From contig JAFVXW010000011.1 in the NCBI GenBank assembly GCA_017500935.1, positions 186,001 through 250,000 on the forward strand: a stretch of 64,000 nucleotides of DNA, written 5' to 3'. Positions 6,247 to 49,487 of this stretch are shown here, in pieces. This DNA comes from Lachnospiraceae bacterium. GTDB taxonomy: Bacteria > Bacillota > Clostridia > Lachnospirales > Lachnospiraceae. Within the stretch, counting starts at the first letter, position 1. The number at the start of each line of letters is the position of its first letter. A program made the position numbers and the translations under genes. Below the pieces are notes generated by a model, which saw only the letters and a program-made list of their open reading frames with translations, did no database searches and was not told the origin of the DNA.

Positions 6247-7718
6247 TGTATACTCCTTAACATATTTTCAAGTCCAGTATTCACTATATCTTTAGATTCT
6301 GCTGTATATTGCGTAAAAAAATTCTTATATATGTTTTTAGTTCCTTTAAATTTATCAATTTCAATTTGTGGATAAATTACTGCTCCTTCCGTAGTGTTCT
6401 CAACAAAATAAATCTTCACAAGTGTATTTAACTCCTCATAATTTTCCATTACTCTATGAATAATTCTATTTATAATATGGTCACTATGGGTCTCAACAAT
6501 TAAATTTCTTTCACTTTTTACAAGTTCAAGCAGATAATCAGCCATATCTAATTCCATTTTAGGATGTAAATGTATTTCAGGTTGTTCAATTATTAACGTT
6601 TCTTCCTTATTCATATAAATCCCTTGTGTAATAATTGGTAAAACCTGACTAACACCAAAACCAATATCAGAAATATTATGTTCATCTAAAGCAATTGAAA
6701 TAGCTCCATTTTTTCCAGATACAGATAATTTACCCATTTCAAAATATGTCAACCAATACTGAATCACCTCGAAATAAGAGTTTTCATGGACTTTTGGGAA
6801 ATTTTCAATAAAAGAAAAATCATTGGCAAATTTTTTATCTTTTATTTTAGCCAATAATGTTGGTGTATTTTCCCCACTAACTCCAACTGAATTCACATTT
6901 CCCTTTATCAAATATGTTCTTTCTGGTGTATGACGTAATGGAGCAATAAAATTGACTCCCTCATACTGAGCAAACGTAATTCGCACAATTGTTAAAATAT
7001 TAGGTATAATACTTTTAACTGAGTTGGGCATATTATAAGCAAATACACTCGTTATAACTAATCCATTAAAAGAACAGGTACATGAGTATTCTGACCAAGA
7101 ATTCGCTGCTTTGGAAAATCCCGGAACATTCTCCCAAGATAAAGAATGTGAATCACCTTTATCTTTGTTCTCATATTTGATATAACTATCACATTCTGGG
7201 ATTTGTTCTCCATCCGTTGTAAATGCAGACACAGAGATCGAATATTCTTTGATATAATTATCTGTAATATACTGACTAAATTCATTGTCATTTTCTTGCT
7301 TACATGTAACAATTTTTAACCGAAGAATAAATTTTTCTATTTCCCCACCAACAGAAGAATATACTCTTCTCAGTTCATTAAAAGCCTTTGCGTCTTGTCG
7401 TTTTATAAATTTTCCTAATTTCTTTATTGTATGATTATGCACTTCAAAGTCATGCTCAACAATAAATAAATCACGTTTTCCGTTGCTATCTGAGAAAACC
7501 ACATCGTCAAAAGTACCATTATCTACTAATTGTCCCGCTAACACAATAGCTGGATCTGGTGACTTACTTTCTACAGTTTGCTTCATCATTAAAATACTTT
7601 TCAATATAGAACTTTTCCCACTACTATTCGTTCCACAAAGAATCGTAAGTGGTGCCAAATCAATCTCTCTATTTTCACTAAAGCACTTATAATTATTTAA
7701 TGCAATTTTTCTAATCAT
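6243..7718 (-). CDS. RecF/OLD-like AAA ATPase (DUF3696-type)
   Basis: 491 residues from the ATG at 7718, which follows AAAGGAG at good spacing; an upstream in-frame ATG at 7784 has no such site. The N-terminus, RKIALNNYKCF, is typical of RecF/SMC-like ATPases. Walker A is GTNSSGKS (29-36), an ABC-like signature region reads GFGVSQVLP, Walker B is IIEQPEIHLHP (about 376-386), and the switch histidine lies in ETHSDH (about 409-414). The middle contains a long insertion between the two ATPase halves. The C-terminus resembles DUF3696. It sits between a phosphoesterase gene and an unknown gene in one operon, in mobile-element cargo. A defence role is plausible but unproven. Confidence 0.8.
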   Translation of the reverse strand: MIRKIALNNYKCFSENREIDLAPLTILCGTNSSGKSSILKSILMMKQTVESKSPDPAIVLAGQLVDNGTFDDVVFSDSNGKRDLFIVEHDFEVHNHTIKKLGKFIKRQDAKAFNELRRVYSSVGGEIEKFILRLKIVTCKQENDNEFSQYITDNYIKEYSISVSAFTTDGEQIPECDSYIKYENKDKGDSHSLSWENVPGFSKAANSWSEYSCTCSFNGLVITSVFAYNMPNSVKSIIPNILTIVRITFAQYEGVNFIAPLRHTPERTYLIKGNVNSVGVSGENTPTLLAKIKDKKFANDFSFIENFPKVHENSYFEVIQYWLTYFEMGKLSVSGKNGAISIALDEHNISDIGFGVSQVLPIITQGIYMNKEETLIIEQPEIHLHPKMELDMADYLLELVKSERNLIVETHSDHIINRIIHRVMENYEELNTLVKIYFVENTTEGAVIYPQIEIDKFKGTKNIYKNFFTQYTAESKDIVNTGLENMLRSIQ

Positions 7719-31886: not shown

Positions 31887-33986
31887 TCAGCAAAATTCAA
31901 TTTCCGCCATTGTGAAAGTGTCCAGATAGGGGATTACAAATTCAACATACCCCTCTTTTTCCTTCCAGTCAAGCAGGTTTTCTTCCGGCAGATGTCTGAC
32001 TGCTTTTACGCATTTACCGTCTGTGCGCACTTTCACACAAATATTGTAAAGAGGAATGTTGGGCAGTACCTTCTGGAAGGTAACCAGATTCAGGCGCAGC
32101 ATATCTCCATCCTCAAACAGGGTCATATCCACTACCGGATGAGCATCACTTTCAAAAGAAAGAGGCTCTTTACAGATATATTTGATCAGATCCGCAAAAT
32201 GGGTGCGCAGATGAGGTTCCGACTCCAGTGCTGCCGTGCAGTAATAGGCTTTGCCCTTTCCGAAAGCATGCTCCGTGATGGCAGCATCACCGTTCCATAC
32301 GCCGGGAGGATTGCTGTGAATGGATGCAAACACACTTAAGTCATGGGAATTGGTATAAGGAAGCACAATATCTGCCAGTGCTTTTGTGTCGTCGTGCATC
32401 CTGATCTGCATCTGATCTGCATGGATCGCCAGCGGATATTTGGGGTTCACACCGTTTAAAATGCCCGATACAGGCTCTTTTGCAGCGGGGCCGATATAAG
32501 TAAAGTCGGATTCTGTTTTGCCTCCAAAATCGACGCCAAACACGTCAGAGAGCAGGAAATTGTCATGGCGTACGCCGTCTTTGGTCACCAGAGATGTATT
32601 CTTGCTGGCGTAAAGGATGCCGCCCTCTGCCACGTACCTGCGCATTGCTTCGATCTCATCATAATCCATGACCAGGATCTCCGGCAGAATGATCACTTTA
32701 AACTGAGACAATTCTTCCAGCTGTGCATAGCTGATGATACCAAAAGGAATATGATGTCTGGACAGCGCATCGCAGGCACCCAGGGATGCCGTCAGATGAG
32801 GCATGGAGCCTTCCAGATCGGAACCGATCACGCCGGCTTTGGCATACTCGCTGACAGGAGTGCCGTTCTGGGCCAGATCCATCTTGGAATTGGTACAAAA
32901 ATAGATCGCTACATCCTGACGCATCTTCCCGCCCCGGTATTTATCAAAAACGGAAGCCTCCTCAAAAAGCTGCGCCATCACATCATAAACAGGCGTATTG
33001 ATGGTTCCCACAGGGTCAATGGCATCAATGAACACGAAGGCACCGCCGTTTGCCATGGAAACGCAAAGTTTGGACTTTAACAGATCCCTGGATTTTAAGG
33101 AGGTGTGATCCTGCAGACTCAAATTGGAAGAAGTTTCATAGCCAAACATGGGGTTGGGCGTGATGTTGTACAAAAACTTGTTTACAAACATCGCCTGCAT
33201 TTCATCGCCGTAAAAATCTGCCTGCATGAAATCCACTTCATTGCGCAGTTCGGAAGAAATACCAAAACGCCAGTTATTGATCACAGGTCCCACCTGATGT
33301 TCCACACTGACACCGGGTGCAAATTCCCGCACCGCGTCAGTACAGAATTTGGCAATGTCGATGATCCACTCTTCCCGTTTGGTCTGGAACTGCGCCCATA
33401 CGGGATCTTCCCAATCCACAACTTCAGGCATCACTTCCCGTCCGGTTTCCTTGGTATATCTTTCCCGGCAGGAATCGCAGTAACATACGCAGGGCCAGAA
33501 GGTCATGTCAAAACGTACGTCATCAATCTCATAGCTGCAGATTTCTTTGATCTGTTCTCTTAAGAAGGCTCTGTATGCTGCATTGTTGGGGCAGGCATGT
33601 TTGTATCTGCCGGTGATGTGGGAGGGATTTCCGTCAGAGAGCTTCATGCTCCATTCGGGATGCTTTTCCACTGCCCAGTTATTGAACAGAATACTGTAGT
33701 AAGCCACAACCTTGATGCCTTTTTCCCTGCACAGAGTGCTGACATCCTTGAACATGTCGCGGCCTTTGAAGCCTTTGTGGAATTCACCGCTCTTTGTGGG
33801 ATAATTGCACAGACCCACATGAGACTGGGTATAGATAACAGCAGACTGGGCACCTACTTTTTCAAGCATTTCCACATACTGCTCTGCACGAAACTGGGAA
33901 AGAAAGCTTTCATCCAGGTCGGTGATATGCATATCAATTACATTTCTTCTATAGGCATGGTTGTACCAGCCATCTCTGTTTTTCAT
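31887..33986 (-). CDS. GHL6-like glycoside hydrolase with beta-galactosidase trimerization-type domain
   Basis: 699 residues. The N-terminal TIM barrel (about 15-370) contains DDVRFDMTFWPCVCYCDSCRERY and VEHQVGPV; acidic residues D159 and a later glutamate could be catalytic. A Rossmann-like domain follows (about 400-590; IPFGIISYAQLEELSQFKVIILPEILVMD ... GGILYAS), typical of GH42-type trimerization domains, and then a beta domain. No signal peptide, so it is cytoplasmic and would act on imported oligosaccharides. AAGGAG precedes the ATG. The family (hypothetical glycosyl hydrolase 6 or a GH29/GH42 relative) has no settled substrate. Confidence 0.65.
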   Translation of the reverse strand: MKNRDGWYNHAYRRNVIDMHITDLDESFLSQFRAEQYVEMLEKVGAQSAVIYTQSHVGLCNYPTKSGEFHKGFKGRDMFKDVSTLCREKGIKVVAYYSILFNNWAVEKHPEWSMKLSDGNPSHITGRYKHACPNNAAYRAFLREQIKEICSYEIDDVRFDMTFWPCVCYCDSCRERYTKETGREVMPEVVDWEDPVWAQFQTKREEWIIDIAKFCTDAVREFAPGVSVEHQVGPVINNWRFGISSELRNEVDFMQADFYGDEMQAMFVNKFLYNITPNPMFGYETSSNLSLQDHTSLKSRDLLKSKLCVSMANGGAFVFIDAIDPVGTINTPVYDVMAQLFEEASVFDKYRGGKMRQDVAIYFCTNSKMDLAQNGTPVSEYAKAGVIGSDLEGSMPHLTASLGACDALSRHHIPFGIISYAQLEELSQFKVIILPEILVMDYDEIEAMRRYVAEGGILYASKNTSLVTKDGVRHDNFLLSDVFGVDFGGKTESDFTYIGPAAKEPVSGILNGVNPKYPLAIHADQMQIRMHDDTKALADIVLPYTNSHDLSVFASIHSNPPGVWNGDAAITEHAFGKGKAYYCTAALESEPHLRTHFADLIKYICKEPLSFESDAHPVVDMTLFEDGDMLRLNLVTFQKVLPNIPLYNICVKVRTDGKCVKAVRHLPEENLLDWKEKEGYVEFVIPYLDTFTMAEIEFC

Positions 33987-34043
33987 ATCTGATCTCCTTA
34001 CGCTGCTGTCTGAAACACTTCGTTTGGCGACTGGTGTATCTGT

Positions 34044-36089
34044 TTACGGATACATCTGCAGAAGCAGTGCGCCGATGTAAGATGCGAAACCGTGGTTCAA
34101 ACTTGCCAGCATATGTTTATGCTCCCAGAGCGTGCCTGTGATATCAGCCATATGACCGAAGAAATCCTTGATTTCTTCTTCCAGCACATCATGCAGGCCC
34201 CATTCGTTCAAAAGTTCCATACGCATATACATACCCATCAGGGAATTGAGCTTGGGGAAGCCCCATTTCTGCACGCTGGGTTTTAATTCTTCCAAAAGAA
34301 TCCGGTAAAGTTCCGGATAACTCTCACTGTCTGCCACGCCGAAGCGGAATGCATAATGCTGGCAGACTTCGGAAATATCCTCGCACAGGATCAGTTCGTT
34401 CTTCTCGTTTCTGACAGAATGATCCCGGAAGAACTGTCCGTCAAAGGACATTTCTCTGATGGTCTGGCGGATGCTTTCTGCTTTTTTAAGCAGCTTTTCG
34501 TCCTGATACCACTTGCCGATCACTTCCAGCATCTCGCTGTAGAGCATATTGCTGGGGTAATTGACATCCTGCCCCCAGTCGTTTGCCTTGGACCATTCAA
34601 GAAAATTGTTGGGTGTTCTTTCCAGCAGACCATATTCATTTTCATACCCTTCAAAATGTGCCAGCAAATCATAGGCTGTTTGATAGAAGCTGTCCACAGA
34701 AACTGCTTTGTTGCGATCTTTGTACTGATCCAGCTCCAGAATAAACCACATCGCCCATTGAGGCATATAAGAACCGCTGATCAAATCTGTCGGATACATG
34801 GAAGGCAGCATTCCCCTGGGTATGGTTTCACAAGTCTGTATCAGGTAATTTTCTACAAAATCATCCTCTACCCACGTCTCCCCGGTAAACGCGTACTCTG
34901 CCTGCGCAGTAAAGTAGCTGTCACAAAGCCATCCGGCTCTTTCTCTGGAGGGGCAATCCATGTAAATGCCCAGAGAATTACATTTGTAAGTTTCCACCGC
35001 GGCATCATAAATTTTCTGCAGCACTTCGTCCTCTGTGTTGGGTCTGGGAATCTCCGGCATGGAATTTCTGCACTTGATCACTTCTGCGCTGTCTAAATCG
35101 ATGGCGCCTTCCAGCACATAGATCGCCCATAACTGGAATCCGCTGATGACGAAGTTGGTAAAATCGACTTTACCGGACATTGCCACACTGAAAGTATTTA
35201 CGATCTCCCAGTGTTTATAGCGAAACTGCCCGTCCACCAGCTTTTCATCAAAGACAAATAAAAGCTTGGTGCCTTCTGCCGCTGTTCCCGTGATATGGAA
35301 CAGACCTGCCGTGTTCTTTTTGTTCTTAAACATGGCAAACTGCCCTTTTGCAAGCTTCATGGGCACAGTCTGCGGTTTATCGGAAATGGTATATCCTAAC
35401 TTTGACACGGTCAGCCAGGGTGTTTCCGTGATCTCATCCAGCACAAAACCGTTGCGCTGCTCATCAATGCGGTCAATGGCCCCCTGCAGGCTGTCCATCT
35501 GCCAGTCATTTTCGATCCAGCTGTAAGTATCCACACAAATGGCTTTCTCAATGGTCTCCGGCTCCAGATCGGGCATGGGCGCACGTCTCTTCAGATAGAT
35601 CACATCCAGATCCCGGATCTCAATCTCACAGGCCGTATCCGGCAGATGCAGATTCCAGCATTCCGCAAACTGACGCTGGAAAGAATATCTGGTAGTCTTT
35701 TGCAGACGGGAGTTGACTCTGTAACCTGCAAAATCATAACCGGTGGCCGCCAGCACCGTGCCGTCGGCACTCACGATTTCCGCCTGTATAAAACCGGGCT
35801 GTTTGACACATTCAAAATTGTAGCAGTTATAGCTTGCTGCCTCAATCTCCAACCGATTACTGCCCGCTTCTGCCGCCAGCGCGATCTCATCCACTCTGGC
35901 ATAACCCTTTGCGGTAGGGGCAGGTCCGTAATGGATCAGCCTGCCGTTTAACAGCACTTTGTAAAAGCTTGCGCCGGTGAGTTTTAAGAGCAGATTGTCT
36001 GCCCCCGTAAACTCTGTAACAAACCGGGCCTGAATATTCATTTCATATGCAAGGTCTTTTAACCAGACCGGTTTTGCTTTCAGAAACAT
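34044..36089 (-). CDS. GH78-like alpha-L-rhamnosidase
   Basis: 681 residues from ATG 36089, preceded by AAAGGAG; an in-frame ATG at 36176 lies inside the 52-bp repeat array and is rejected. N-terminal beta domains bind and position the substrate. The (alpha/alpha)6 barrel (about 360-640) contains MDCPSRERAGWLCDSYFTAQ, the acidic signature of GH78, and GTLWEHKHMLASLNHGF, which holds a probable catalytic Glu. No signal peptide, so it is intracellular. It would release rhamnose or a related deoxy sugar. It is shorter than many GH78 enzymes. The long array of repeats forms its upstream region. Confidence 0.8.
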   Translation of the reverse strand: MFLKAKPVWLKDLAYEMNIQARFVTEFTGADNLLLKLTGASFYKVLLNGRLIHYGPAPTAKGYARVDEIALAAEAGSNRLEIEAASYNCYNFECVKQPGFIQAEIVSADGTVLAATGYDFAGYRVNSRLQKTTRYSFQRQFAECWNLHLPDTACEIEIRDLDVIYLKRRAPMPDLEPETIEKAICVDTYSWIENDWQMDSLQGAIDRIDEQRNGFVLDEITETPWLTVSKLGYTISDKPQTVPMKLAKGQFAMFKNKKNTAGLFHITGTAAEGTKLLFVFDEKLVDGQFRYKHWEIVNTFSVAMSGKVDFTNFVISGFQLWAIYVLEGAIDLDSAEVIKCRNSMPEIPRPNTEDEVLQKIYDAAVETYKCNSLGIYMDCPSRERAGWLCDSYFTAQAEYAFTGETWVEDDFVENYLIQTCETIPRGMLPSMYPTDLISGSYMPQWAMWFILELDQYKDRNKAVSVDSFYQTAYDLLAHFEGYENEYGLLERTPNNFLEWSKANDWGQDVNYPSNMLYSEMLEVIGKWYQDEKLLKKAESIRQTIREMSFDGQFFRDHSVRNEKNELILCEDISEVCQHYAFRFGVADSESYPELYRILLEELKPSVQKWGFPKLNSLMGMYMRMELLNEWGLHDVLEEEIKDFFGHMADITGTLWEHKHMLASLNHGFASYIGALLLQMYP

Positions 36090-36121
36090 ATGCGCACCGC
36101 TCCTTTCCGAATTGTGTATTT

Positions 36122-36545
36122 CATGCAAATTTAGGTTTTTGGCAAATTTACATGCTTTCTCAAATTGCCAATTCATGCAAATTCCAGTATTTTACTTTCT
36201 TGCATGCTCTTAAATACTGGCGATTCATGAAAATTTTAAATTTTCTCATTTTTGCATGCTTCTATCAATTACCATTTCATGAAAATTTAAGTTTTTTGTT
36301 TTTTGAATGCTTTCTTCCGAACAGCACTGTATGCAAATTTGCCGTTTTCCTGATTTTGCATGATTTATCATTTTGATACTGCATTCAAATTTGCTTTTTT
36401 CTTATATTTGCATGCAATCTCATTTGCAAGCTACATGCAAATTCCGTTTTTCCACAATTTTGCATGCTCTCCCAATAACCGCAAGCATGCAAATCTCAAT
36501 TTTTCTTATATTTGCCTGCCGGAAACCAAATCCCCGGCAGGCAAA
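36122..36545. repeat. 52-bp tandem array of hairpin units
   Basis: Left-arm sequences (consensus CATGCAAAT) begin at 36122, 36174, 36226, 36278, 36330, 36382, 36434 and 36486, exactly 52 bp apart, with a ninth partial copy at 36538. A right arm (consensus TTTGCATGC) sits 24-33 bases into nearly every unit. The rest of each unit has diverged. The period is not a multiple of three, so it is non-coding. It fills the gap between the rhamnosidase start and the stop of the upstream barrel gene. At the last boundary TTTGCCTGCCGG and CCGGCAGGCAAA form a perfect 12-bp stem. Confidence 0.9.
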
Positions 36546-36583
36546 TTCACATTTTTACAAATCAGGATCAGCAAAGCCGCCCA

Positions 36584-38395
36584 TCATTCCTGCGCAGCAG
36601 CGTAGATCGCATCAATATCCTCGCAGTATTTGGTCCATACATTGACACGTTTCTGCCAGTCTTCTTCTGTCATCACAACGGTTCTCTTACCGAAGTCTTC
36701 GGTCATTTTGTCGATCAGAGGAGAACCGAAGGTGATGGATTCTTCCATGAAGTTGAGCAGTTCTTCGTGGCTGCCGATACCGCCGCCGTCAGAGTCAATG
36801 AGAACGCCGGGGATAGCGGTGGAGAACAGGTCTGCACGCCATCTCATACAGGAAGACAGGTTGCGCAGTTCTGCCTGCAGGTCATGCAATCTTGCCTGGT
36901 CGGTACATTCTGCAAAGTAAGGGTTGCCGGAGGAGCAGTTGATCAGCGCGTCGGGTTTTATGGATTTTACGGTGTTGTAGATCAGGGACTGCATGCGCTT
37001 TAACAGTTCCACACCGTATACTTCGGTCTCGAAAATGTAGCACTCAGGATTTCTGGGACGGGTATCTGCATAATCGATCTTGAAGCCGTCACAGTTGAAG
37101 CATCCTTCATCGGGAGAAAGCAGGGTATAGATTGCCTTCTGCAGATATTCTGCATAAGCAGGAGAAGTAGGGTCAGCATGCTGCACAGCGTCTGCATGTC
37201 TTGCGCACTGTTCCCACTGAAGACCTTCTGCATCCCACATCTTGAACCATAACAGAACCTTGCGGCCTTTTGCGTGCTGTTCTTCCACGAATCCGCGCAT
37301 ATCAGGCCATTTTTCCTCGTCAACGATCAGATCGCCGTAGTTTTTCTGCCACTTGTCATCAATAACGATAACCTTCACGGGAAGGTTTCTTTCTTCGATC
37401 TTGTCAACACAACCCTGATACAGTTCCTGGGTAGCCAGCTGTTTTGCCTTCTTCCATGCCAGCCATTCGATGTGTTTTAAGTGTGCAACGGACGCATCCT
37501 TAAGAGCTTCTTTGTCTTCAAAGTATTCCTGTCTTGCCTTGCAGTTCTGTTCGCCCCAGCCGCAGAAGAAAGGTCCGCGCCACCAGCGGGGAACATCGGT
37601 ATATTTAGCGGTATGAAGAGGCGCGCGCTTGCAGCCGTTGTACTTAAAGTTCCATTCGGTATATGCCTTCATGGCATCCAGTTCATCGGAACCGAAAGTG
37701 ATCAGCAGATTTGCAGTTTCCCAGCTGCCGCCTTCGCCTACTTTACGGGGACGGGGATAAGGAACCACAAAGCTGCAGCGGTTTTCAAACAGTTTGTACT
37801 GGAATTCGTCGAAATTGTATTCGCCGGGTGCCGGACAAAGGCTTACTGCGATAGAGCCTGCAGCTTTTTCGGATACGAAGGGGAAACCAAACATGGGAGG
37901 AGCCAGCAGAGTGGAAGTAATGGTGCTGCTCTCAATGATCTCGCGGTACATTCTCTTCTTGGAGCAATGCAGTGCCAGAGGCAGGGTGTAACCGGATGCT
38001 TCATATTCGGTATCATAGCAGTAAACAACCTTGCCTACAGACTGGAAACCTTCCAGACCGGTGCAGGCATTTTCCAGATCGGGTGCACCGAAATTATAAA
38101 CATTTTTGCGGGGTTCGCTTACCTTAGCCTTAAAGCTGATGCCATCTTCTGCAACATCGAGAGTGTAGAGCTTCTTGGCCCAGCGGGTGCTGGCAGTTTC
38201 AAACTGGATCACGGTGTGACCGTCTTTTTCGCAAACCACTTCTGCTTCCTTCAGGATTCTGCGGTCTTTATCCTCTTCACCCACGTAGATGGTGAGGGGG
38301 AACTTAAACCATGTAAGCCCGTTGTAAGTTACGTGCAGAACATTGTCGATCACTTCCGCTTTGTAAGCAGGGAAATTAAAGGTGATAGGATTCAT
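36584..38395 (-). CDS. GH31/GH36-like TIM-barrel glycosidase, paralogue 1
   Basis: 603 residues, similar along its whole length to the protein at 43494-45302. An N-terminal beta-supersandwich (about 1-250) is followed by WWRGPFFCGWGEQ, VIVIDDKWQKNYGDL, VLLWFKMWDAEGL, CDGFKIDYADTRPR (probable nucleophile Asp) and IDSDGGGIGSHEE. The layout fits clan GH-D or GH31 retaining alpha-glycosidases (alpha-galactosidase or alpha-glucosidase type). No signal peptide. The exact family and substrate are undecided. The next gene downstream is separated by the 52-bp array. Confidence 0.7.
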   Translation of the reverse strand: MNPITFNFPAYKAEVIDNVLHVTYNGLTWFKFPLTIYVGEEDKDRRILKEAEVVCEKDGHTVIQFETASTRWAKKLYTLDVAEDGISFKAKVSEPRKNVYNFGAPDLENACTGLEGFQSVGKVVYCYDTEYEASGYTLPLALHCSKKRMYREIIESSTITSTLLAPPMFGFPFVSEKAAGSIAVSLCPAPGEYNFDEFQYKLFENRCSFVVPYPRPRKVGEGGSWETANLLITFGSDELDAMKAYTEWNFKYNGCKRAPLHTAKYTDVPRWWRGPFFCGWGEQNCKARQEYFEDKEALKDASVAHLKHIEWLAWKKAKQLATQELYQGCVDKIEERNLPVKVIVIDDKWQKNYGDLIVDEEKWPDMRGFVEEQHAKGRKVLLWFKMWDAEGLQWEQCARHADAVQHADPTSPAYAEYLQKAIYTLLSPDEGCFNCDGFKIDYADTRPRNPECYIFETEVYGVELLKRMQSLIYNTVKSIKPDALINCSSGNPYFAECTDQARLHDLQAELRNLSSCMRWRADLFSTAIPGVLIDSDGGGIGSHEELLNFMEESITFGSPLIDKMTEDFGKRTVVMTEEDWQKRVNVWTKYCEDIDAIYAAAQE

Positions 38396-38450
38396 AGGAA
38401 TTCTCCTTTCATATCTGATCCGGTCCGTGTCACGGTCTGCCGGAATTTTT

Positions 38451-40529
38451 TCATATAACAGCTGCTGCAGAATCCGCAGGTATCACCAAACTGTCTGCAA
38501 AAGCAGTCAGTTCGCTGTCGTCTACCAGACGGTACTGTGTAAGTCTGCTGCCGTCATCCAGAATGGGGATCACTCTGACCGGTTCATCTGTGTAGTTGCA
38601 GATGATCATGCCTTTTTTGCCGTCTGCCGTCTCAAACACGGAATAATATGCCATATTTTCGCCGGACTCCAGCATTACTTTGCCGCCTTCCTTATCTTTG
38701 AAGGTGCCGTCCCAGAAATATTCACGCAGCTGGGTTCTCAAGGCGTCCATCTTATTGCCGTAAGCAATGGTGGCTGCCGCATCGGAGGGCATTCCTTTGA
38801 ACATATAAGGCTCGTAGCTCATGATATAGCGGTTTAACAGACTCTGATTTACCATTGCCCTGTCATTGAAGCCGTGAAGAGATGTCATGATGCTGCGATG
38901 GGGGCGCTGACGCCGCATGTTGGGTTTATGATCTCTGCCCCAGCTTCTGAAATAGGTAAAATCATAATACTGGTACTGGAAATCATAAAGTTCTTCGCCG
39001 GCAAAGAGGAATTCTCTGTCACCGACAATCTCGCGGAAGCCGTTGATCAGTGTTTCATCCCAGGCAAAAATACTTTCTCCGTAACGGTGTCCGTGACTGG
39101 TATCAAAACAGCACATGCTGGGTCCGTGGGAACAACCCTCGTCAAAAAGAATACCGTCCGCTCCCAGATCCACACATTTTTGGAATTCCCGGTTACAGAT
39201 CTCCCGGTATTCGGCAGAACCGAAACACATGGGGATCAGACGTCTGGTACTTACATCGGTCATCTGGGATAAACTCTGGTAATTGTATCCCCTGGTCACA
39301 TAATAGTTGCCATAAGGATCTTTTGCCGCGTATTTGCGGTATATCTGTTCAAAATCTGCTCTGGACTGGTCCGCCCAGGTAAACTTTGCAAACAGGATCA
39401 CCTTGACGCCCATTTCCCGGATCTGGCGGATGGCTTCTTTCAGTTCTTCAAAAGTACCCAGTCGGGGATCGGGATCATGGCAGGGATTGTTTCTGTCCTG
39501 TCCGCCATGGTTCCAGCCAACCAGCTGAATCGCCCTGATGCCGTATTTTTTACACTCCTCTCCCACTTTGGGCAGGTCTGTAAAACGCATGCGGAGCTCA
39601 TCTTCCGGGGAATTGATGTGAAGCTGCAGCCAGGAATGAGGCTCGCAGACCCATCCGGGAATCTTGCGGGCGGTATTTTCCCATTCATCGGCCCATTTCT
39701 GATAGCATTCGATGCCGCCGGCCCAGTCATTGGTGCAGGCATCCAGTGCAAAAGGCAGAAGTTCGAAATCCATGCCCGGGGCAACAAAGGGAAGATGTCC
39801 TACGCTGAAACGGATGTAAACATCCTTGCCGCCAAAGCTGTCCTCTTCAAAAACCCTGAAGTCGTTGGTATTGCTCCAGCCGGGCAGACACTCTGCAAAC
39901 CAGGCACAGGCTTCCATCCTGCGCTGTGTGGCGCAGATCACAAGACTGCTGCCCTTTTCATCGCATACCAGACTCATGGGATTCAACGGCGGATTGCTCT
40001 GGTCACTGAGACTGAAGGTGGGCTGATCCATGGACCAGGAACCGTTGCGGTTGGGGAAAGTGGGATACATCTCCGCCTCTCTCACATTGCACTGGGCACC
40101 GTACATGAATTTGTATCGTTTTGCCCCTTCCGGTCTGTGCAGATCCCCGATGCAGGGATAATACACATTCTCTACCACAAGATCGTCTCTGTTTTGAATC
40201 TGCATAAAAAAAACAGCCTGTTCTTTTTCAATGCAGCATTTTGTTGTGATTTTAATATTATGGGTGCCGCCGAACCTGCTCTTTACCTGATTCCAGGTAA
40301 AAGCCACATGATTTTCATCAGCTTCCCATTCAGGAGCGTCCTGTTCATTGCCCCAGGCCTGATTGTTGCGTTTTCCCTCCAGCGGGATCATCAGACGCCA
40401 GGACAGGCCCAAGTGAGGTCTTTTTATAATATTCCAATCTGAAACTTTAGAATATAAGCCCACCAGAGAACCGGTGCCGGAATCAAATTCCAAAGTCAGA
40501 TTTTGGGTTTCCAGTTTCAGAAGTCCCAT
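38451..40529 (-). CDS. DUF6259-like glycosidase-fold protein
   Basis: 692 residues from ATG 40529 with GGAGG ahead; an upstream in-frame start at 40586 lacks a site. An N-terminal beta domain (LKLETQNLTLEFDSGTGSL) leads to a TIM barrel containing IRAIQLVGWNHGGQDRNNPC, VKVILFAKFTWADQS, DGILFDEGCSHGPSMC and FAGEELYDFQYQYYDFTYF. Asp in LFDEG and Glu in AGEE are catalytic candidates. The C-terminus is an all-beta domain. No signal peptide. I place it in the DUF6259/unclassified glycosidase group. Fourth gene of the glycosidase run. Confidence 0.65.
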   Translation of the reverse strand: MGLLKLETQNLTLEFDSGTGSLVGLYSKVSDWNIIKRPHLGLSWRLMIPLEGKRNNQAWGNEQDAPEWEADENHVAFTWNQVKSRFGGTHNIKITTKCCIEKEQAVFFMQIQNRDDLVVENVYYPCIGDLHRPEGAKRYKFMYGAQCNVREAEMYPTFPNRNGSWSMDQPTFSLSDQSNPPLNPMSLVCDEKGSSLVICATQRRMEACAWFAECLPGWSNTNDFRVFEEDSFGGKDVYIRFSVGHLPFVAPGMDFELLPFALDACTNDWAGGIECYQKWADEWENTARKIPGWVCEPHSWLQLHINSPEDELRMRFTDLPKVGEECKKYGIRAIQLVGWNHGGQDRNNPCHDPDPRLGTFEELKEAIRQIREMGVKVILFAKFTWADQSRADFEQIYRKYAAKDPYGNYYVTRGYNYQSLSQMTDVSTRRLIPMCFGSAEYREICNREFQKCVDLGADGILFDEGCSHGPSMCCFDTSHGHRYGESIFAWDETLINGFREIVGDREFLFAGEELYDFQYQYYDFTYFRSWGRDHKPNMRRQRPHRSIMTSLHGFNDRAMVNQSLLNRYIMSYEPYMFKGMPSDAAATIAYGNKMDALRTQLREYFWDGTFKDKEGGKVMLESGENMAYYSVFETADGKKGMIICNYTDEPVRVIPILDDGSRLTQYRLVDDSELTAFADSLVIPADSAAAVI

Positions 40530-40595
40530 AACGTACTCCTCCCACAACTGCATTTTCCGGCAGGCCCGGATACAGACCTGCCGCAAACATCATTC

Positions 40596-43448
40596 TTATT
40601 TGTAAATCTTTACCTGTGCGATGCAGTAAGGATCAACCGCAAATGCAACCGTATTTCCGTCAGCCGCAGCTTCTGCCAGAGTATTGCCGTCAAGATCAGT
40701 CATGACCGCTTTGGAAACTTCAAAAGGAACACGTACCGTCACTTTATCCTCTTTGCCCATGGTTTCATACATACGGATGGTCAGCGCATCATCTGCAGAT
40801 ACAAAGATACTGCTGATCACGGTTCCTGCTGCTTCAAATCCGAGCAGACTGCCTTCTGCCGCCAGCTTGCCGTCATGATATCCGGTAGGCACACCGATCA
40901 TAGGTCTTGTCAGACGTTCTGCATCGTATTTGAGCTGTACAGGATTGCCGTCAGTCAGTTTCACAAACACTTTGATGGCATGAATACCGCGCTCCGGATA
41001 AGGATCGGGATCATAGGAGGTATTGATGAGGCTGACAGACAGTGTATTATCCACAAAACGCATACCATACTTACAGTCAGTCATAAGTGCCAGTGTAGTC
41101 TGGTCGGTTACCGCACAGATACCGGTCAGCGCAGGAATATCAATATAATCTGCCTTGGTAACAGCTGTACCGGCCGGAACGTCTCTCTGTACGCAGTCGG
41201 AACCGTTCTTTAAGGGAACGCGGAAGGTCAGCAGCGGAATGTTGGCCTGCGCCTGACGGATCTCGTGCCAGTCTACCTTCAGATCATAGGAAAGAGCATC
41301 TGCATCTTTATCCAGTGCAATGGTCATGGTCACATCGGAATGCATTACTTTCTGTTTGAAAGTCACGCTGTCACGCACTTTTCCGCGGCTGTACGCCACC
41401 TCATAGGTATCGGTTACAGGAACGGTCTTCAGATGACGTCCGATCTGCCATGCGGTACCGGGCATTTCCTGGGTCTCCACCAGATACAGACCTGCGGGTG
41501 CTGCCAGCATTTCTTCTCCGGTTTTCTTATCGGTCAAAGAAAGGACCATACCGCTTCCGGTATCAAATTTTGCACAGAGCCTGCTGTTCTCGAGAGTAAC
41601 AAGGCCCTTGGGTAAATTGTCATAATTGCCTCTGTCATCTTCCGGACGAACCTTATAATCTGTGGTTTCTTTTTCATAAAGTGCACAGGTGGTATAGCCG
41701 AAAGGTTCCACACTCATCTTTACCATCACGCGGAAATAGTTGTGGCCCCAGTACCAGAAGGGTCTGTCTTTGCCGCAGATTATCTGGAATTCCAGAGGAT
41801 TTCCATTCTGGTCGATCATCTCCAGCTGATTCATCTTGCCGGTATAATCCCAGACGGTCAGTTCCACCACTTCGTCTCTCTTGACTGCAGTAGGATTGAA
41901 CACTGTGTAAATACGGCATTTTCCCGCGCCTCTTTCAGGGTTTGGCACGCCTGCATAATTCTTGATGGCATATCCCACGCCCGCACTTTCGGAAGTGGTA
42001 TCTGCGATATCATCATCATAAGGATACATGGTGGTATCCACATTGCGGGAAATGGTTTCGTAGGCTTTTGCCTGCTGGGTCTGTGCAGTTGCGATGGCAT
42101 CTGCAAATTTGCCCATGGCATACTCTCTGGTTTCCTGTACACCGGAACCGGTGAGAATATCATGGAAATGATTAAACAGCACACCTTCCCATGCTTTGCT
42201 GTAATGTTTGCCCAGGAAGTCTGTTCCAAGGGTAAAATGAGACAGTGCGCTCATTTTTTCGGAATCCAGAAGTCCTGCTTCCGCACGTCTGTTGCCCAGT
42301 TTCACGCGGCTCTGAGTGGTGAAACATCCGTCGAAGATAAAGTTTAATTCGCTGTCCAGTACAGGAAGTGTATCTCTGACAGACTCTGCCTTCTCGAAGA
42401 ATTCATGCAAAGTACCGAATTTAATGACAGGGAATACCGGCCATTTCTGCATTTCCAGAATGTTCTCAATATCTCTTCTGGAAGGGCCGCCGCCATGATT
42501 ACCCACGCCATATACGATCAGCGCAGTTTTCAGACCGTTGAACATCTTTTCACATTCAATGGCGAAAGGTGCGCATTCTGTATGTACGCGGCTGTTATAC
42601 CAGTAAAATTCCTTGTACACCAGGATTTCTTTACCGGAAGGAGCCTTGTAGCGGTACAGATGTAAACCGGGCGCATACACACCGCGGCAGTGATAGTAGT
42701 AAGGCACATTACCGAAGTTGTTGATTTCCGGTACAAAACGGCTGTGTCCGAAGGTATCCGGCGAAAAGTCCACTTTGATATTTTCAACGCCCCATACATC
42801 TCTTAAATAGTCTCTGGTGATACTGATATGGCGGATCAGAGATTCGGTGTCAGGCATATTTTTGTCGGTTTCCACCCATGCATTGGCGGTCACTTCCCAA
42901 CGGCCTTCCGCGATTCTTGCCTTAATCTCTTCCATCATGGCAGGATCGTACTCTTCCACGATCTTATAAGTGGATGCCTGTGACTGGGAATAGGTAAATT
43001 CCGGATACTCCTGCATCAGATTCAGCATGGTACGGAAGGAGGAAAGGGTGATCGCCACGGTTTCCTGCCAGCCCCACTGCCAGTTCATATCAATATGGGC
43101 ATGAGATGCAAAAAGCACTTCGTATGTCTTTGCATCACTCTCCATGGGCAGAAGGATCTCTTCTGCTTTGCGGCAGACAGCTTTGCTTAAAACGCCGTCT
43201 TCTTCCATGCTGTTTTCCAGAAGTTCCAGGGAAGCGGTTACTTCCTTCTCATATTTTCCTTCCAGGCGGTCGGAAAGCTTCATTGCAAATAACAATTCAG
43301 CCAGGATACGCTCAATATGTTTGGGTACCTTGGTGATATTCATGTTATCTTCCACCATAAGAAGGTTCATATCGTGGAAGTTTCTTGACACTTCGCGATT
43401 GCCGCCCACCTGTTTTTTTAATTTTTCATAACGTCCGTATAAGTTCAT
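40596..43448 (-). CDS. GH38 alpha-mannosidase
   Basis: 950 residues. Zinc ligands lie in SHAHIDMNW (H118, D120), the nucleophile is D231 in FSPDTFGHS, and a further metal-binding segment is LFNHFHDILTGSGVQ (about 425). The C-terminal half is the beta-rich GH38 domain set. Bacterial GH38 enzymes are usually 850-1050 residues, so it is complete. No signal peptide, so it acts on imported mannosides, for example fragments of N-glycans. It is the third gene of the run. AAGGGG precedes the ATG. Confidence 0.9.
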   Translation of the reverse strand: MNLYGRYEKLKKQVGGNREVSRNFHDMNLLMVEDNMNITKVPKHIERILAELLFAMKLSDRLEGKYEKEVTASLELLENSMEEDGVLSKAVCRKAEEILLPMESDAKTYEVLFASHAHIDMNWQWGWQETVAITLSSFRTMLNLMQEYPEFTYSQSQASTYKIVEEYDPAMMEEIKARIAEGRWEVTANAWVETDKNMPDTESLIRHISITRDYLRDVWGVENIKVDFSPDTFGHSRFVPEINNFGNVPYYYHCRGVYAPGLHLYRYKAPSGKEILVYKEFYWYNSRVHTECAPFAIECEKMFNGLKTALIVYGVGNHGGGPSRRDIENILEMQKWPVFPVIKFGTLHEFFEKAESVRDTLPVLDSELNFIFDGCFTTQSRVKLGNRRAEAGLLDSEKMSALSHFTLGTDFLGKHYSKAWEGVLFNHFHDILTGSGVQETREYAMGKFADAIATAQTQQAKAYETISRNVDTTMYPYDDDIADTTSESAGVGYAIKNYAGVPNPERGAGKCRIYTVFNPTAVKRDEVVELTVWDYTGKMNQLEMIDQNGNPLEFQIICGKDRPFWYWGHNYFRVMVKMSVEPFGYTTCALYEKETTDYKVRPEDDRGNYDNLPKGLVTLENSRLCAKFDTGSGMVLSLTDKKTGEEMLAAPAGLYLVETQEMPGTAWQIGRHLKTVPVTDTYEVAYSRGKVRDSVTFKQKVMHSDVTMTIALDKDADALSYDLKVDWHEIRQAQANIPLLTFRVPLKNGSDCVQRDVPAGTAVTKADYIDIPALTGICAVTDQTTLALMTDCKYGMRFVDNTLSVSLINTSYDPDPYPERGIHAIKVFVKLTDGNPVQLKYDAERLTRPMIGVPTGYHDGKLAAEGSLLGFEAAGTVISSIFVSADDALTIRMYETMGKEDKVTVRVPFEVSKAVMTDLDGNTLAEAAADGNTVAFAVDPYCIAQVKIYK

Positions 43449-43493
43449 AGAAAGCCCCTTTCGTTTAAGGAAGTTTATCGAATCAGTCTGAAC

Positions 43494-45302
43494 TCAGTTA
43501 TTTTCGGCGTAGATTGCATCCTGTTCGGCCGCATATGCTTTCCAGGTCTGACGTCTTACATCCCAGTCTTCCTTGGTAAACTTGACTTCTCTTTCACCGC
43601 TGTCTTCCGTGATGGTGTACATAACGGGAATACCAAGTTTCACAGAGTTTTCCATAAAACGGGCCATTTCTGCATGGCTGCCGGATCCGCCGCTGTCGGT
43701 GTCTTTTAATACCCCGGGCATTGCTGCGTCAAACAGCTCAGCACGCCATTTCATGCAGTAGTAAGTGTTGCGCAGTTCGCCTGCCAGGTCATGCAGTCTT
43801 ACCTGATCGACAACTTCTGCAAAATAAGGATGTGCGGAAGAACAGTTGATCAGCGCGTCGGGCTTTACAGCCTTGGCTGCATCATGGATCAGGGTGAGCA
43901 TCCGCTTTAACAGTTCCACGCCGAATGCGTTATTGTCATATGTCTCAATGCGGGGATCTTTGGGTCTGCAGTCAGTGTAATCGATCTTAAAGCCGTCACA
44001 GTTAAAACAGCCTTCATCTGCGGAAAGCAGCTTATACATAGCCTTCTGCACACGCTCTGCATAAGCGGGAGCGGTGGGATCCGCATACTGAACCGCGTCG
44101 GTAATTCTCGCACATTCATGCCAGGTAAGTCCCTCTGCATCCCAGGTCTTAAACCACAGCATTACTCTGCGGCCTTTTTTGTGTTCTGCTTCTACAAATC
44201 CGCGCAGATCAGGCCATCTTTCGGTATCCACTTCCAGATCACCGTAGTTTTTCTGCCACTTATCGTCAATGATGATCGCAGAAACAGGAAGATCCAGTTC
44301 ATCCAACATGCGGGATGCATTTGTATAAACTTCCTGTGTTGCCAGAGTTTTGGCATCGATCCATGCAAGGCGATCCAGAGCCTTGATATGGGCGGGACTT
44401 GCATTTTTGATCTCTTCTTTATCAGAAAAATATTTCTTTCTTGCGATGGCGTTCTGCTCACCCCAACCGCAGAAGAAAGGACCTCTCCACCAACGGGGAA
44501 TGGCTGCAGGGCCGCCTTCATAAGCAGGATTTTTCTTACAGCCGTTGTGGTTGTAATGCCACTGCGCATGGGATGCCAGGGAACCAATTTCGTCCTCGCC
44601 AAAAGTGACTACCAGCGCAGGGCTTTCCCAGCTGTCATTGGAACCCACAAAACGGGGTTTGGGATAAGGCAGGATAAAGCTGCATCTGTTTTCCAGCATC
44701 TGATAGCGGAAAATATCGAAGTGATATTCGCCGGGTGCGGGTGCGATACCGATGGCTACAGAGCCTTTGGCATATTCGGTCACGAAAGGAAATGCAAACA
44801 TGGGAGGAGACAGGTAGGTGGAGGAAATGGTTCCGTTTTCTCTTGTCTCACGATACATGCGAAGTTTGGATGCATGGGTTGCAAAGGGAAGATAGTAGCC
44901 GGATGCCTCATACATGGACTTGGGGCAAAACTCCACTTCACCGATCGTCTGCTGGGGAATCATGTCCGCACCGGTGTATCCCATATCGCCGGCGTCCATT
45001 CCTGCCACACTGATGGCAGGCTGGCTTACCTTTACTTTCAGGCTGATGCCGTCAGGAAGCAAAGAAAGGGTGTAAAGCTTTTCGCCCCAGCATCTGCTGG
45101 TTGCGGTAACAGTCAGAGTGGTTTCCTCTGCATTCTGTGTCACGATGGCAGGACCGCTTAAAATACGGCGCTCTTTGTCGTTTTCACCAACTCTGATGTA
45201 AATGGGAAGCTGAAACCAGTTCAGTCCGTTATAGGTAATGCTGATCACATTGTCAGCAACAACTGCGCTGTAAGCAGGATAATTGCAAGTGATAGGCTGC
45301 AT
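43494..45302 (-). CDS. GH31/GH36-like TIM-barrel glycosidase, paralogue 2
   Basis: 602 residues. It shares the motifs of 36584-38395: NYPAYSAVVADNVISITYNGLNWF, WWRGPFFCGWGEQ, IIIDDKWQKNYGDLEVD, MLWFKTWDAEGL, CDGFKIDYTDCRPK and KDTDSGGSGSH. By eye about half of the residues agree. The probable nucleophile is Asp in FKIDY. An intact duplicate with different surface loops suggests two related linkages or sugars in the same glycan. Second gene of the run, cytoplasmic. Confidence 0.7.
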   Translation of the reverse strand: MQPITCNYPAYSAVVADNVISITYNGLNWFQLPIYIRVGENDKERRILSGPAIVTQNAEETTLTVTATSRCWGEKLYTLSLLPDGISLKVKVSQPAISVAGMDAGDMGYTGADMIPQQTIGEVEFCPKSMYEASGYYLPFATHASKLRMYRETRENGTISSTYLSPPMFAFPFVTEYAKGSVAIGIAPAPGEYHFDIFRYQMLENRCSFILPYPKPRFVGSNDSWESPALVVTFGEDEIGSLASHAQWHYNHNGCKKNPAYEGGPAAIPRWWRGPFFCGWGEQNAIARKKYFSDKEEIKNASPAHIKALDRLAWIDAKTLATQEVYTNASRMLDELDLPVSAIIIDDKWQKNYGDLEVDTERWPDLRGFVEAEHKKGRRVMLWFKTWDAEGLTWHECARITDAVQYADPTAPAYAERVQKAMYKLLSADEGCFNCDGFKIDYTDCRPKDPRIETYDNNAFGVELLKRMLTLIHDAAKAVKPDALINCSSAHPYFAEVVDQVRLHDLAGELRNTYYCMKWRAELFDAAMPGVLKDTDSGGSGSHAEMARFMENSVKLGIPVMYTITEDSGEREVKFTKEDWDVRRQTWKAYAAEQDAIYAENN

Positions 45303-47711: not shown

Positions 47712-49487
47712 TTAGTTATATAAGGTATTGTAGATTTCGTCTGCACGGCCGGACCAGTAAGCTTCAACTTCTTCTACACCCAGTTCGATACATTCTGCAA
47801 TGATCTCATCCTGAATCTTCTTGAATTCTGCATCGTCCTTAGCCAGTACACATTCATGTGCTCTTGCAACGAATGCTTCAGCGATACGGCTTTCCATACG
47901 AGCGATGTCGTCGGGACCGTTGCCGCCGATGATATTGTATACGTCAGTGATGTTGCGCAGGTCATATGCCTTGCCTGCTTCGATCTGGTTACGGGAAGTT
48001 TCGATAGGTAAGTTTACACCATAGAACTCAGAATAGTCTTTTTCCATGGGAGTCATAGCGTCCATCAGCACCTGATCGGAGAACCACAGGTTCATAGGAT
48101 ATCCGTCAGAGTGGGTAGCTCTCATGGAAATACCGTAGAACATGTTGTTCAGATATCTGGTCTGCAGCTTAGCGGTAGCATCACCGGTCTTGTTGATTTC
48201 GATCATTTCAGGCTTGATGGTAGGAACGCCATCTACGTAATCCCACTGACGGCCTTCCACGCCGTTACCGCACATTCTTGCGCCTTCTTCACTGTTGAGG
48301 TATTCAAATACCTTCATCATCTGTTCCTGATAAGGAGAATCCTTAACAGCACCGATGTAGCAGCCCCAACCGTAATCGGAGTACTTGTTATCCCAGTAGC
48401 TTACGCCTTCAACGGGAACAGAAATGTAACCTGCGATGGAGTTGGGATCTTCCACCAGAGAGTTTGCTTCCAGATCGCCGCCGTATGCAGGGGAGAAAGG
48501 ACCTGCCAGCTGACCGTTGGTAGCTTTCGCTTCCATATCGTCACGGGTCTGGGTCAGAGCGTCGGGATCCATGATACCCATCTGGTTAGCCATGTATGCC
48601 CATTCGATTGCAAACCAAACACCGGATCTTTCCACATCAGTGATCAGGTTGCAGAATTTACCGTTGATGGTATCCCAACCCATAGTAGGGCTGAAATGAG
48701 TGGTTCCGTTAATGTTACCCATAGTTGCCCAGGTAGCGATATCGGGAGCCTGATGGAAGGAGAAGCCGTATACCTTATCGCCGTTTTCGGTTTCGGGATG
48801 TGCTTCCACCATCTGTTTAAGAACGTTCAGATAAGATTCTCTGTCAGTGATTTCAGGGCAGCCAAGTTCTTTGTACCAATCCCATCTTACAGTGTAACCG
48901 TAGTTCTGGGTTCTGCCGTTTAATTCGGGACCTACTGCGGTGGTCCATACATGCAGATCGCCGGTATCACCGGAGTTGAAAGCACGCAGAGCGTTTACTC
49001 TTACATCGTTGGAGAATACGTTGGGAAGCTGATCCTTGTAGTCTTCCAGATTGGTAACCATGCCTGCTTTGATCATGGTATCAACGTAGCTTGAGCCAAG
49101 CTTGAACATATCGAAGTTCAGATCGCCGGATGCCAGCATCATATCGATCTGTTCGTTAGCGCCGTTAACCATTACCAGTTCTGCGCCAGCATATTCACGC
49201 AGTGCTGCATTCAGGTCGTTGAATACTTCGGTAGGCCAGTTGCTGTCAAAGTTGCCGCCTTCATAGATAAAACGGATCTGAACGATTTCTTCTTCCTCTT
49301 CCGCTTCTTCCACCTTTTCTTCAGCGGGCTCTTCTGCCTTTTCTTCTGCAGGAGCTTCTGCCTTCTCTTCGGTCTTGGTCTCAGCAGCAGGCTGCTGTGT
49401 TTCTTCTGCTTTCTCGCTGCCGCAGCCAATCAGAGTGGATGCCAGCAGACCAGTCACCAGAATCATGCTGATCAATTTCTTTTTCAT
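47712..49487 (-). CDS. Sugar ABC transporter solute-binding lipoprotein (LplA-type)
   Basis: 591 residues. The lipoprotein signal is MKKKLISMILVTGLLAST, with lipobox LIGC at C22. A long Glu/Ala/Pro/Lys linker (about 27-68) holds the domain off the membrane. The mature part is a large family 1 binding protein (WPTEVFNDLNAALREYAGAEL ... GFSFHQAPDIATWATM ... GWGCYIGAVKDSPYQEQMMKVFEYL). It captures an oligosaccharide for the two permeases encoded upstream. No ATPase gene is present; such systems share a common MsmX-type ATPase. Likely control by the YesM/YesN pair. Confidence 0.9.
   Translation of the reverse strand: MKKKLISMILVTGLLASTLIGCGSEKAEETQQPAAETKTEEKAEAPAEEKAEEPAEEKVEEAEEEEEIVQIRFIYEGGNFDSNWPTEVFNDLNAALREYAGAELVMVNGANEQIDMMLASGDLNFDMFKLGSSYVDTMIKAGMVTNLEDYKDQLPNVFSNDVRVNALRAFNSGDTGDLHVWTTAVGPELNGRTQNYGYTVRWDWYKELGCPEITDRESYLNVLKQMVEAHPETENGDKVYGFSFHQAPDIATWATMGNINGTTHFSPTMGWDTINGKFCNLITDVERSGVWFAIEWAYMANQMGIMDPDALTQTRDDMEAKATNGQLAGPFSPAYGGDLEANSLVEDPNSIAGYISVPVEGVSYWDNKYSDYGWGCYIGAVKDSPYQEQMMKVFEYLNSEEGARMCGNGVEGRQWDYVDGVPTIKPEMIEINKTGDATAKLQTRYLNNMFYGISMRATHSDGYPMNLWFSDQVLMDAMTPMEKDYSEFYGVNLPIETSRNQIEAGKAYDLRNITDVYNIIGGNGPDDIARMESRIAEAFVARAHECVLAKDDAEFKKIQDEIIAECIELGVEEVEAYWSGRADEIYNTLYN

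What the first reader, a model, noticed from the sequence alone, without database searches (positions are those of the whole stretch)
36122..36545. Exact 52-bp tandem array of hairpin-forming units between two glycosidase genes
Eight units begin with variants of CATGCAAAT at exactly 52-bp steps (36122 to 36486) and a ninth left arm falls at 36538. Seven of eight right arms (TTTGCATGC) lie at the same offset of +29. The bases between are highly diverged, yet the period is unbroken, which implies selection on arm position or on length. 52 bp is about five helical turns, so arms would lie on one DNA face. At the last boundary the right arm of unit 8 changed to TTTGCCTG and the left arm of unit 9 to CAGGCAAA: a compensatory change that keeps pairing and extends to a 12-bp stem. 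This suggests pairing of the right arm of one unit with the left arm of the next. The array would form a multi-hairpin leader of the GH78 message or a protein-binding array. I know no described repeat with this form.
Basis: seen in the sequence. Interest (0 to 1): 0.85.

Follow-up and report, generated by a model that had tools for sequence, protein, structure and literature searches.

The report
Nuclease-linked arrays of phased inverted repeats
The repeat array is one of many scattered through this gut bacterium's genome, and such arrays accompany a family of DNA-cutting-enzyme-like genes, usually each with its own repeat sequence spaced by whole turns of the DNA helix, which looks like a new kind of self-spreading repeat system.

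Summary
The array is real: nine left arms at exact 52-bp steps, seven of eight right arms at one offset (+24/+25, not +29). It is not a local leader. The same arms form at least 17 intergenic arrays in this genome, units 52-53 or 61-63 bp apart, i.e. whole helical turns. A congener has the same design with arm CATGTAAAT and period 63. In both genomes one array lies directly beside a solitary gene for a PD-(D/E)XK-like nuclease; of 13 genomes of the genus only these two have the gene, and only these two have the arrays beyond single stray hits. Among 77 relatives of the gene scanned, 34 are flanked by arrays of at least four units (1 of 171 control stretches), mostly with different arms, with periods near 53, 63, 74, 84 or 105 bp: 10.5 bp times 5, 6, 7, 8 or 10. 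Arms are kept while the DNA between drifts. I read this as an undescribed DNA element: a site-specific nuclease with its own dispersed, helically phased binding arrays, spreading REPIN-like. Coupling, phasing and dispersal are shown; binding, cutting and nuclease-driven spread are inferred. The RNA-leader reading is not supported.

The parts
36122..36154 (.). unit 1 (arms 36122-36130 and 36146-36154)
36174..36206 (.). unit 2
36226..36258 (.). unit 3
36278..36309 (.). unit 4, right arm one base early (+23), two mismatches
36330..36362 (.). unit 5
36382..36414 (.). unit 6
36434..36466 (.). unit 7 (matches the two-arm pattern with 0 mismatches)
36486..36518 (.). unit 8 (right arm ATTTGCCTG)
36538..36546 (.). 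ninth left arm (CAGGCAAAT), no right arm
36510..36546 (-). 13-bp perfect hairpin made of the unit 8 right arm and the ninth left arm; possibly the terminator of the upstream GH31-like gene
   Evidence: I4; z -6.5
34044..36089 (-). GH78-type alpha-L-rhamnosidase-like gene downstream of the array; probably not part of the system
   Evidence: (PF17389, for the longer frame 34044-36176), start and Shine-Dalgarno
36584..38395 (-). GH31-like gene upstream of the array; probably not part of the system
   Evidence: PF01055

Best explanation
The array is a non-autonomous copy of a two-part DNA element: (1) a solitary protein of about 263 aa with an N-terminal helical hairpin bearing a small beta sheet and a C-terminal PD-(D/E)XK, I-Bth0305I-like endonuclease domain, and (2) arrays of inverted-repeat units that are its private binding sites. 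Proposed working: a dimer grips the two arms of a unit (arm to arm 24 bp here); neighbouring units are set at whole helical turns so that dimers line up on one face of the DNA and assemble cooperatively; nicking or cutting there is repaired in ways that lengthen the array and seed it at other intergenic places. Arms are kept because the enzyme needs them; the DNA between drifts. Shown: gene-array coupling, differing arms, helical quantisation, dispersal, shared absence in the genus. Inferred: binding, dimerisation, cutting, nuclease-driven spread.
Confidence: 0.57

Rival explanations
1. Host-serving nucleoprotein arrays: the protein has been recruited as an architectural or regulatory DNA-binding protein, and the arrays are phased operators that fold DNA, insulate or terminate between genes, and autoregulate the nuclease gene.
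For: Helical phasing, arm conservation against drifting interiors, all 54 arrays examined in three genomes outside called genes (17 of 17 and 11 of 11; 26 of 26), convergent bias in G000 (8 of 17 against 37 of 233 gaps, Fisher p 0.0016), arrays mostly on the 5' side of the nuclease gene (29 up, 8 down; the upstream stretch scanned was longer, 899 against 700).
Against: The 20 flanking genes searched share no function; patchy presence (2 of 13 in the genus); G005 elements are not biased to convergent gaps (3 conv, 9 co, 9 div of 21 placed, 5 unplaced) nor clearly G187 (2 conv, 7 co of 9 placed); catalytic residues invariant.
Confidence: 0.23
2. A defence system: the nuclease cuts incoming DNA and the arrays store, mark or titrate it.
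For: The nuclease domain is shared with the candidate defence family PDC-S68 (E 1e-24 to 1e-29 for three proteins); patchy distribution.
Against: Only the C-terminal domain is shared; arrays are dispersed far from the gene; the 8 viral-contig hits match the nuclease domain only. Partner genes were not searched systematically.
Confidence: 0.09
3. RNA hairpin leader or terminator array.
For: The minus-strand transcript folds better than shuffles (z -6.2); the last boundary is a strong hairpin and 3 of 7 units folded alone have z -3.7 to -4.3; between-unit excess in G000 (9 of 1000).
Against: Inverted repeats fold by construction; the other 4 of 7 units have z -1.5 to +0.8; no covariation within units in two genomes nor between units in G187; position relative to genes varies; spacing by whole DNA turns has no meaning for RNA.
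Confidence: 0.05
4. Neutral decaying minisatellite with no protein partner.
For: Tandem homogenisation inside arrays in G187.
Against: In G000 arms stay at .78-.80 identity while interiors of the same units are at .37-.42; spacing changes by about 10 bp; gene coupling in 34 of 77 loci.
Confidence: 0.03

Closest known systems
REP/REPIN sequences with RAYT (TnpA-REP)
   Same: Intergenic palindromic repeats in many copies per genome, tied to a gene whose enzyme is thought to spread them (starts of abstracts, abstract).
   Different: Enzyme is PD-(D/E)XK/I-Bth0305I-like, not the single-strand HUH class (class recalled; title); units form arrays at whole helical turns, not 20-40 bp GTAG/CGTC-tagged palindromes.
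Homing endonuclease I-Bth0305I (EDxHD family)
   Different: Not seen in an intron or intein; the proposed target is a multi-unit array in many places of the host genome.
Centromere-type arrays such as sopC of plasmid F (recalled, no call)
   Same: Tandem units of about 43 bp with an inverted repeat each, bound by a partner protein encoded nearby.
   Different: There the partner is a ParB-type protein with an ATPase; here a nuclease, on chromosomes, with many arrays.
Neisserial intergenic mosaic elements (dRS3; recalled, search listing only)
   Same: Intergenic arrays of short inverted repeats with variable sequence between.
   Different: No cognate nuclease beside them and no helical period known to me.
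PDC-S68 candidate defence family (PADLOC)
   Same: Homologous C-terminal nuclease domain.
   Different: Profile of about 1200 positions; similar plasmid hits are annotated as AAA ATPase or RecD-like helicase; no arrays known to me.

Membership tests
REPIN/RAYT | dispersed intergenic palindromic repeats in many copies | tested here: met
REPIN/RAYT | associated Y1/HUH transposase | tested here: not met
   associated protein is PD-(D/E)XK-like by model and structural matches and PADLOC profiles; no Pfam match for P0001
REPIN/RAYT | GTAG or CGTC tag at the foot of the palindrome | tested here: not met
   the arms printed for 19 systems and 32 systems carry no shared tag by eye
EDxHD homing endonuclease | catalytic domain fold of I-Bth0305I | tested here: inconclusive
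EDxHD homing endonuclease | conserved EDxHD active-site residues | tested here: inconclusive
   E161, D192, E207, H208 invariant in 52 of 52; no residue-level superposition made
EDxHD homing endonuclease | gene inserted in its own target (intron, intein or allele) | tested here: inconclusive
   arrays on both sides of 5 of 77 genes; no empty allele found (one search gave diverged relatives only)
CRISPR array | direct repeats with unique spacers beside Cas genes | tested here: not met
   units are inverted repeats with homogenised or drifting interiors; the adjacent gene P0001 has no Cas match in Pfam or NCBIfam; other neighbours were not searched for Cas
PDC-S68 defence family | full-length protein of about 1200 residues | tested here: not met
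   only about residues 132-261 match, at the C-terminal end of the profiles
Structured RNA family of Rfam | match at gathering score | tested here: not met
   0 matches in the window

The most novel reading that the evidence does not exclude
A new class of prokaryotic selfish or domesticated DNA element: a solitary endonuclease builds, phases and disperses its own private inverted-repeat arrays, setting units at 5 to 10 whole helical turns; each paralogue evolves its own arm sequence, so one genome can carry several independent nuclease-array systems.
Probability: 0.5. Interest if true: 0.93.

Novelty: categorically new. Interest (0 to 1): 0.87.

Why it matters
It offers a testable link between a nuclease and the birth, length control and spread of bacterial repeats, and a natural series of protein-DNA specificity pairs. 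It may also explain repeat families otherwise filed as minisatellites.

Tried and rejected
RNA leader: folded the whole array and 7 units alone plus the last hairpin and tested arm covariation: not supported. Rfam: 0 matches in the window. tRNA: none in the window. Regulon: 20 flank genes unrelated. A rare ATT start codon of the nuclease: suggested in G000/G005 only; in the family ATG is the commonest in-frame codon 3-12 bases after the Shine-Dalgarno (41 counts). General convergent bias: in G000, not in G005. Phage or plasmid origin: 3 phage records, one covering 97% of the protein at 33% identity; 8 plasmid records, at most 44% covered; IMG/VR 8 loci, nuclease domain only. Dispersal of the P0005 motif: not above control. 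Empty site of the nuclease gene: neighbour too diverged in congeners. The hydrogenase neighbour gave only 39-40% relatives. Glutamine synthetase comparison: 12 loci read (own, G005, 10 other congeners); L218 had only 201 bases of 3' sequence, and for L219 the script took a frame on the wrong strand, so its 3' side was not judged; judged by eye on 520 printed bases. G002 gave only a fragment. Literature: searches over open-access PMC listed no description of such arrays; subscription journals and preprints were not covered. Papers: PMC3943268 passages seen, PMC8049555 abstract and outline, others search listings with starts of abstracts.

Full report
CHECK. The array is as described: nine left arms at exact 52-bp steps from 36122 to 36538 and seven of eight right arms at one offset. 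The offset is +24 (or +25 for TTTGCATGC), not +29. Tandem Repeats Finder sees it as two pieces of period 52. It lies between a GH31-like gene (36584-38395, minus) and a GH78-like gene whose start is at 36089.

A GENOME-WIDE FAMILY. The two-arm pattern with up to 2 mismatches hits the own genome (G000) 55 and 57 times on the two strands, control 0 and 0. From 24 stretches fetched around hits plus the window I define 17 arrays with 81 units; all 17 lie outside called genes, and neighbouring units are 52-53 or 61-63 bp apart, apart from one 41, one 10 (overlapping detection) and larger gaps where a unit is missed. The 20 flanking proteins searched are unrelated housekeeping, redox, peptidase, transport or sugar genes.

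THE CONGENER AND THE NUCLEASE. Of 13 genomes of the genus, only G000 and G005 have more than one hit of the CATGYAAAT pattern (52/45 and 13/9); G012 and G006 have one each. G005 uses CATGTAAAT at period 63. In both, an array ends just before a gene for a protein of about 263 aa. That protein is found in 2 of 13 genus genomes, the same two; three of the 13 are under 90% complete. There are 2 copies in G000 and 3 in G005, and by eye each of the five has an array with different arms beside it: CATGCAAAT, CATGTAAAT, ACATGTAC, GGGCRTA, GGGGTATAT.

THE FAMILY. In the bacterial family of the window 59 of 150 genomes match at E<=0.001 (43 of 125 of good quality), some only to the nuclease domain in long proteins. 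Of 77 loci scanned (3 of 80 left out), 34 have at least 4 two-arm units at one fixed arm distance on at least one side (29 upstream, 8 downstream); 0 of 592 shuffles reached 3. Fourteen more loci reach exactly 3 units, 8 of these at regular spacing by eye. The same scan on 171 stretches of the same loci far from the gene gave 1 with a score of 4 or more, a 36-bp repeat in L108. Arms mostly differ from locus to locus; L117 and L146 share GCAGGCG. Five genes have 3 or more units on both sides.

HELICAL PHASING. Modal periods of the 37 arrays are 52-53, 61-65, 73-75, 84-85, 105 and one outlier 312; the fit to 10.5 bp has R 0.88 (best 10.8, R 0.91; on 66 distinct spacings best 10.6, R 0.85), against 0.53 for the 99.9% quantile of a null maximised over periods. 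Outlier and odd gaps (116, 117, 133) were included.

DISPERSAL ELSEWHERE. In the genome of L108 (G187) its motif gives 103 and 131 hits, control 1 and 1, none in two other genomes; the ten stretches fetched hold 11 arrays with 84 units, every spacing 53 or 106-107. In the genome of L147 (G186) 34 and 36 hits, control 1 and 3, on several contigs; three other genomes have 0-2 per strand. In G005 the motif of its L068 paralogue gives 99 hits per strand, 0 in 11 of the other 12 genus genomes and 2 in G002. These form a four-unit element, mostly 71-52-71, mirror-symmetric in arm type; 26 loci were fetched, 22 near-complete copies oriented; the 16 closest have mean pairwise identity 0.70 and similarity runs some tens of bases into both flanks. 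For the second G000 paralogue dispersal is not shown; for the GGGCRTA paralogue it was not tested.

SAME SPOT, DIFFERENT SYSTEM. Downstream of glutamine synthetase III, G000 has a CATGCAAA-type array and G005 a GGGGTAT element; by eye 9 other congeners (one with 201 bases only) show neither, and one was not judged. This fits arrays that come and go with the resident nuclease; G003 has an unrelated long inverted repeat there.

WHAT IS CONSERVED. Between arrays of a genome the arms are .86 (G187) and .78 (G000) identical, interiors .37 in both. Within arrays interiors are .84 in G187 (homogenised) but .42 in G000, where arms are still .80. Dyads are A/T-rich in both. Compensatory arm changes are not above shuffles within units; between neighbours they are above in G000 (9 of 1000) and not in G187 (934 of 1000).

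POSITION. All 54 arrays placed in three genomes are outside called genes. G000: 8 convergent, 7 co-directional, 2 divergent, against 37/160/36 background gaps (convergent excess p 0.0016). G187: 2/7/0 of 9 placed. G005: 3/9/9 of 21 placed.

MECHANISM. Most likely a nuclease-driven repeat element that works like REPIN/RAYT but with another enzyme and architecture. Shown: coupling, differing arms, whole-turn spacing, dispersal, shared absence. Inferred: dimer binding, cooperative assembly, cutting, repair-linked growth and spread. The fixed G005 element argues for copying of whole elements; the array-specific interiors of G187 argue for local growth and homogenisation, so both may occur.

NOVELTY. 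My searches listed no description in open-access text; this does not cover subscription journals. No known family that I tested fits (membership table).

Noticed in passing
L025:6798-6816, L059:1378-1393, L066:2286-2299 (-), L068:1467-1482: In these nuclease genes an ATT codon follows the Shine-Dalgarno where the conserved N-terminus begins. L025 has no ATG/GTG/TTG until residue 58; the others have an ATG 6-12 codons on (in L066 with its own Shine-Dalgarno). A rare start codon is only a suggestion, and not general in the family.
   Followed up: partly
L068:880-1038: A 33-bp tandem repeat (4.8 copies) beside the G005 nuclease gene resembles the left end sequence of the dispersed four-unit element.
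   Followed up: no
L030:5535-5739 and 6386-6590: An array lies between two copies of a tRNA-Leu(cag)-tRNA-Leu(aag) pair, i.e. inside a duplicated segment.
   Followed up: partly
L025:6530-6760 and L212 (3' of glutamine synthetase): Sub-arrays with shifted arms (CAGTCAAA / TTTGAATG) sit next to the main type, as if arm specificity were drifting inside one genome.
   Followed up: no
G000:C84:96366-96467: Two ACATGTAC-type units 63 bp apart (1 and 2 mismatches), a possible remote array of the second paralogue.
   Followed up: no
G005 contigs C4, C20 (start), C42, C98, C143, C147: Contigs end within about 20-330 bases of GGGGTAT elements, as expected if the repeat breaks the assembly.
   Followed up: no
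L217:1036-1095 and 1197-1256: A 60-bp, 98% inverted repeat beside glutamine synthetase III in congener G003, unlike the arrays described.
   Followed up: no
window 49305-49370: 24-bp tandem repeat inside the ORF 47712-49487 (-).
   Followed up: no
window 31887-45302: Run of glycoside hydrolase-like genes (GHL6/GH42M-, GH78-, GH31-, GH38-like, DUF6259) on the minus strand.
   Followed up: partly
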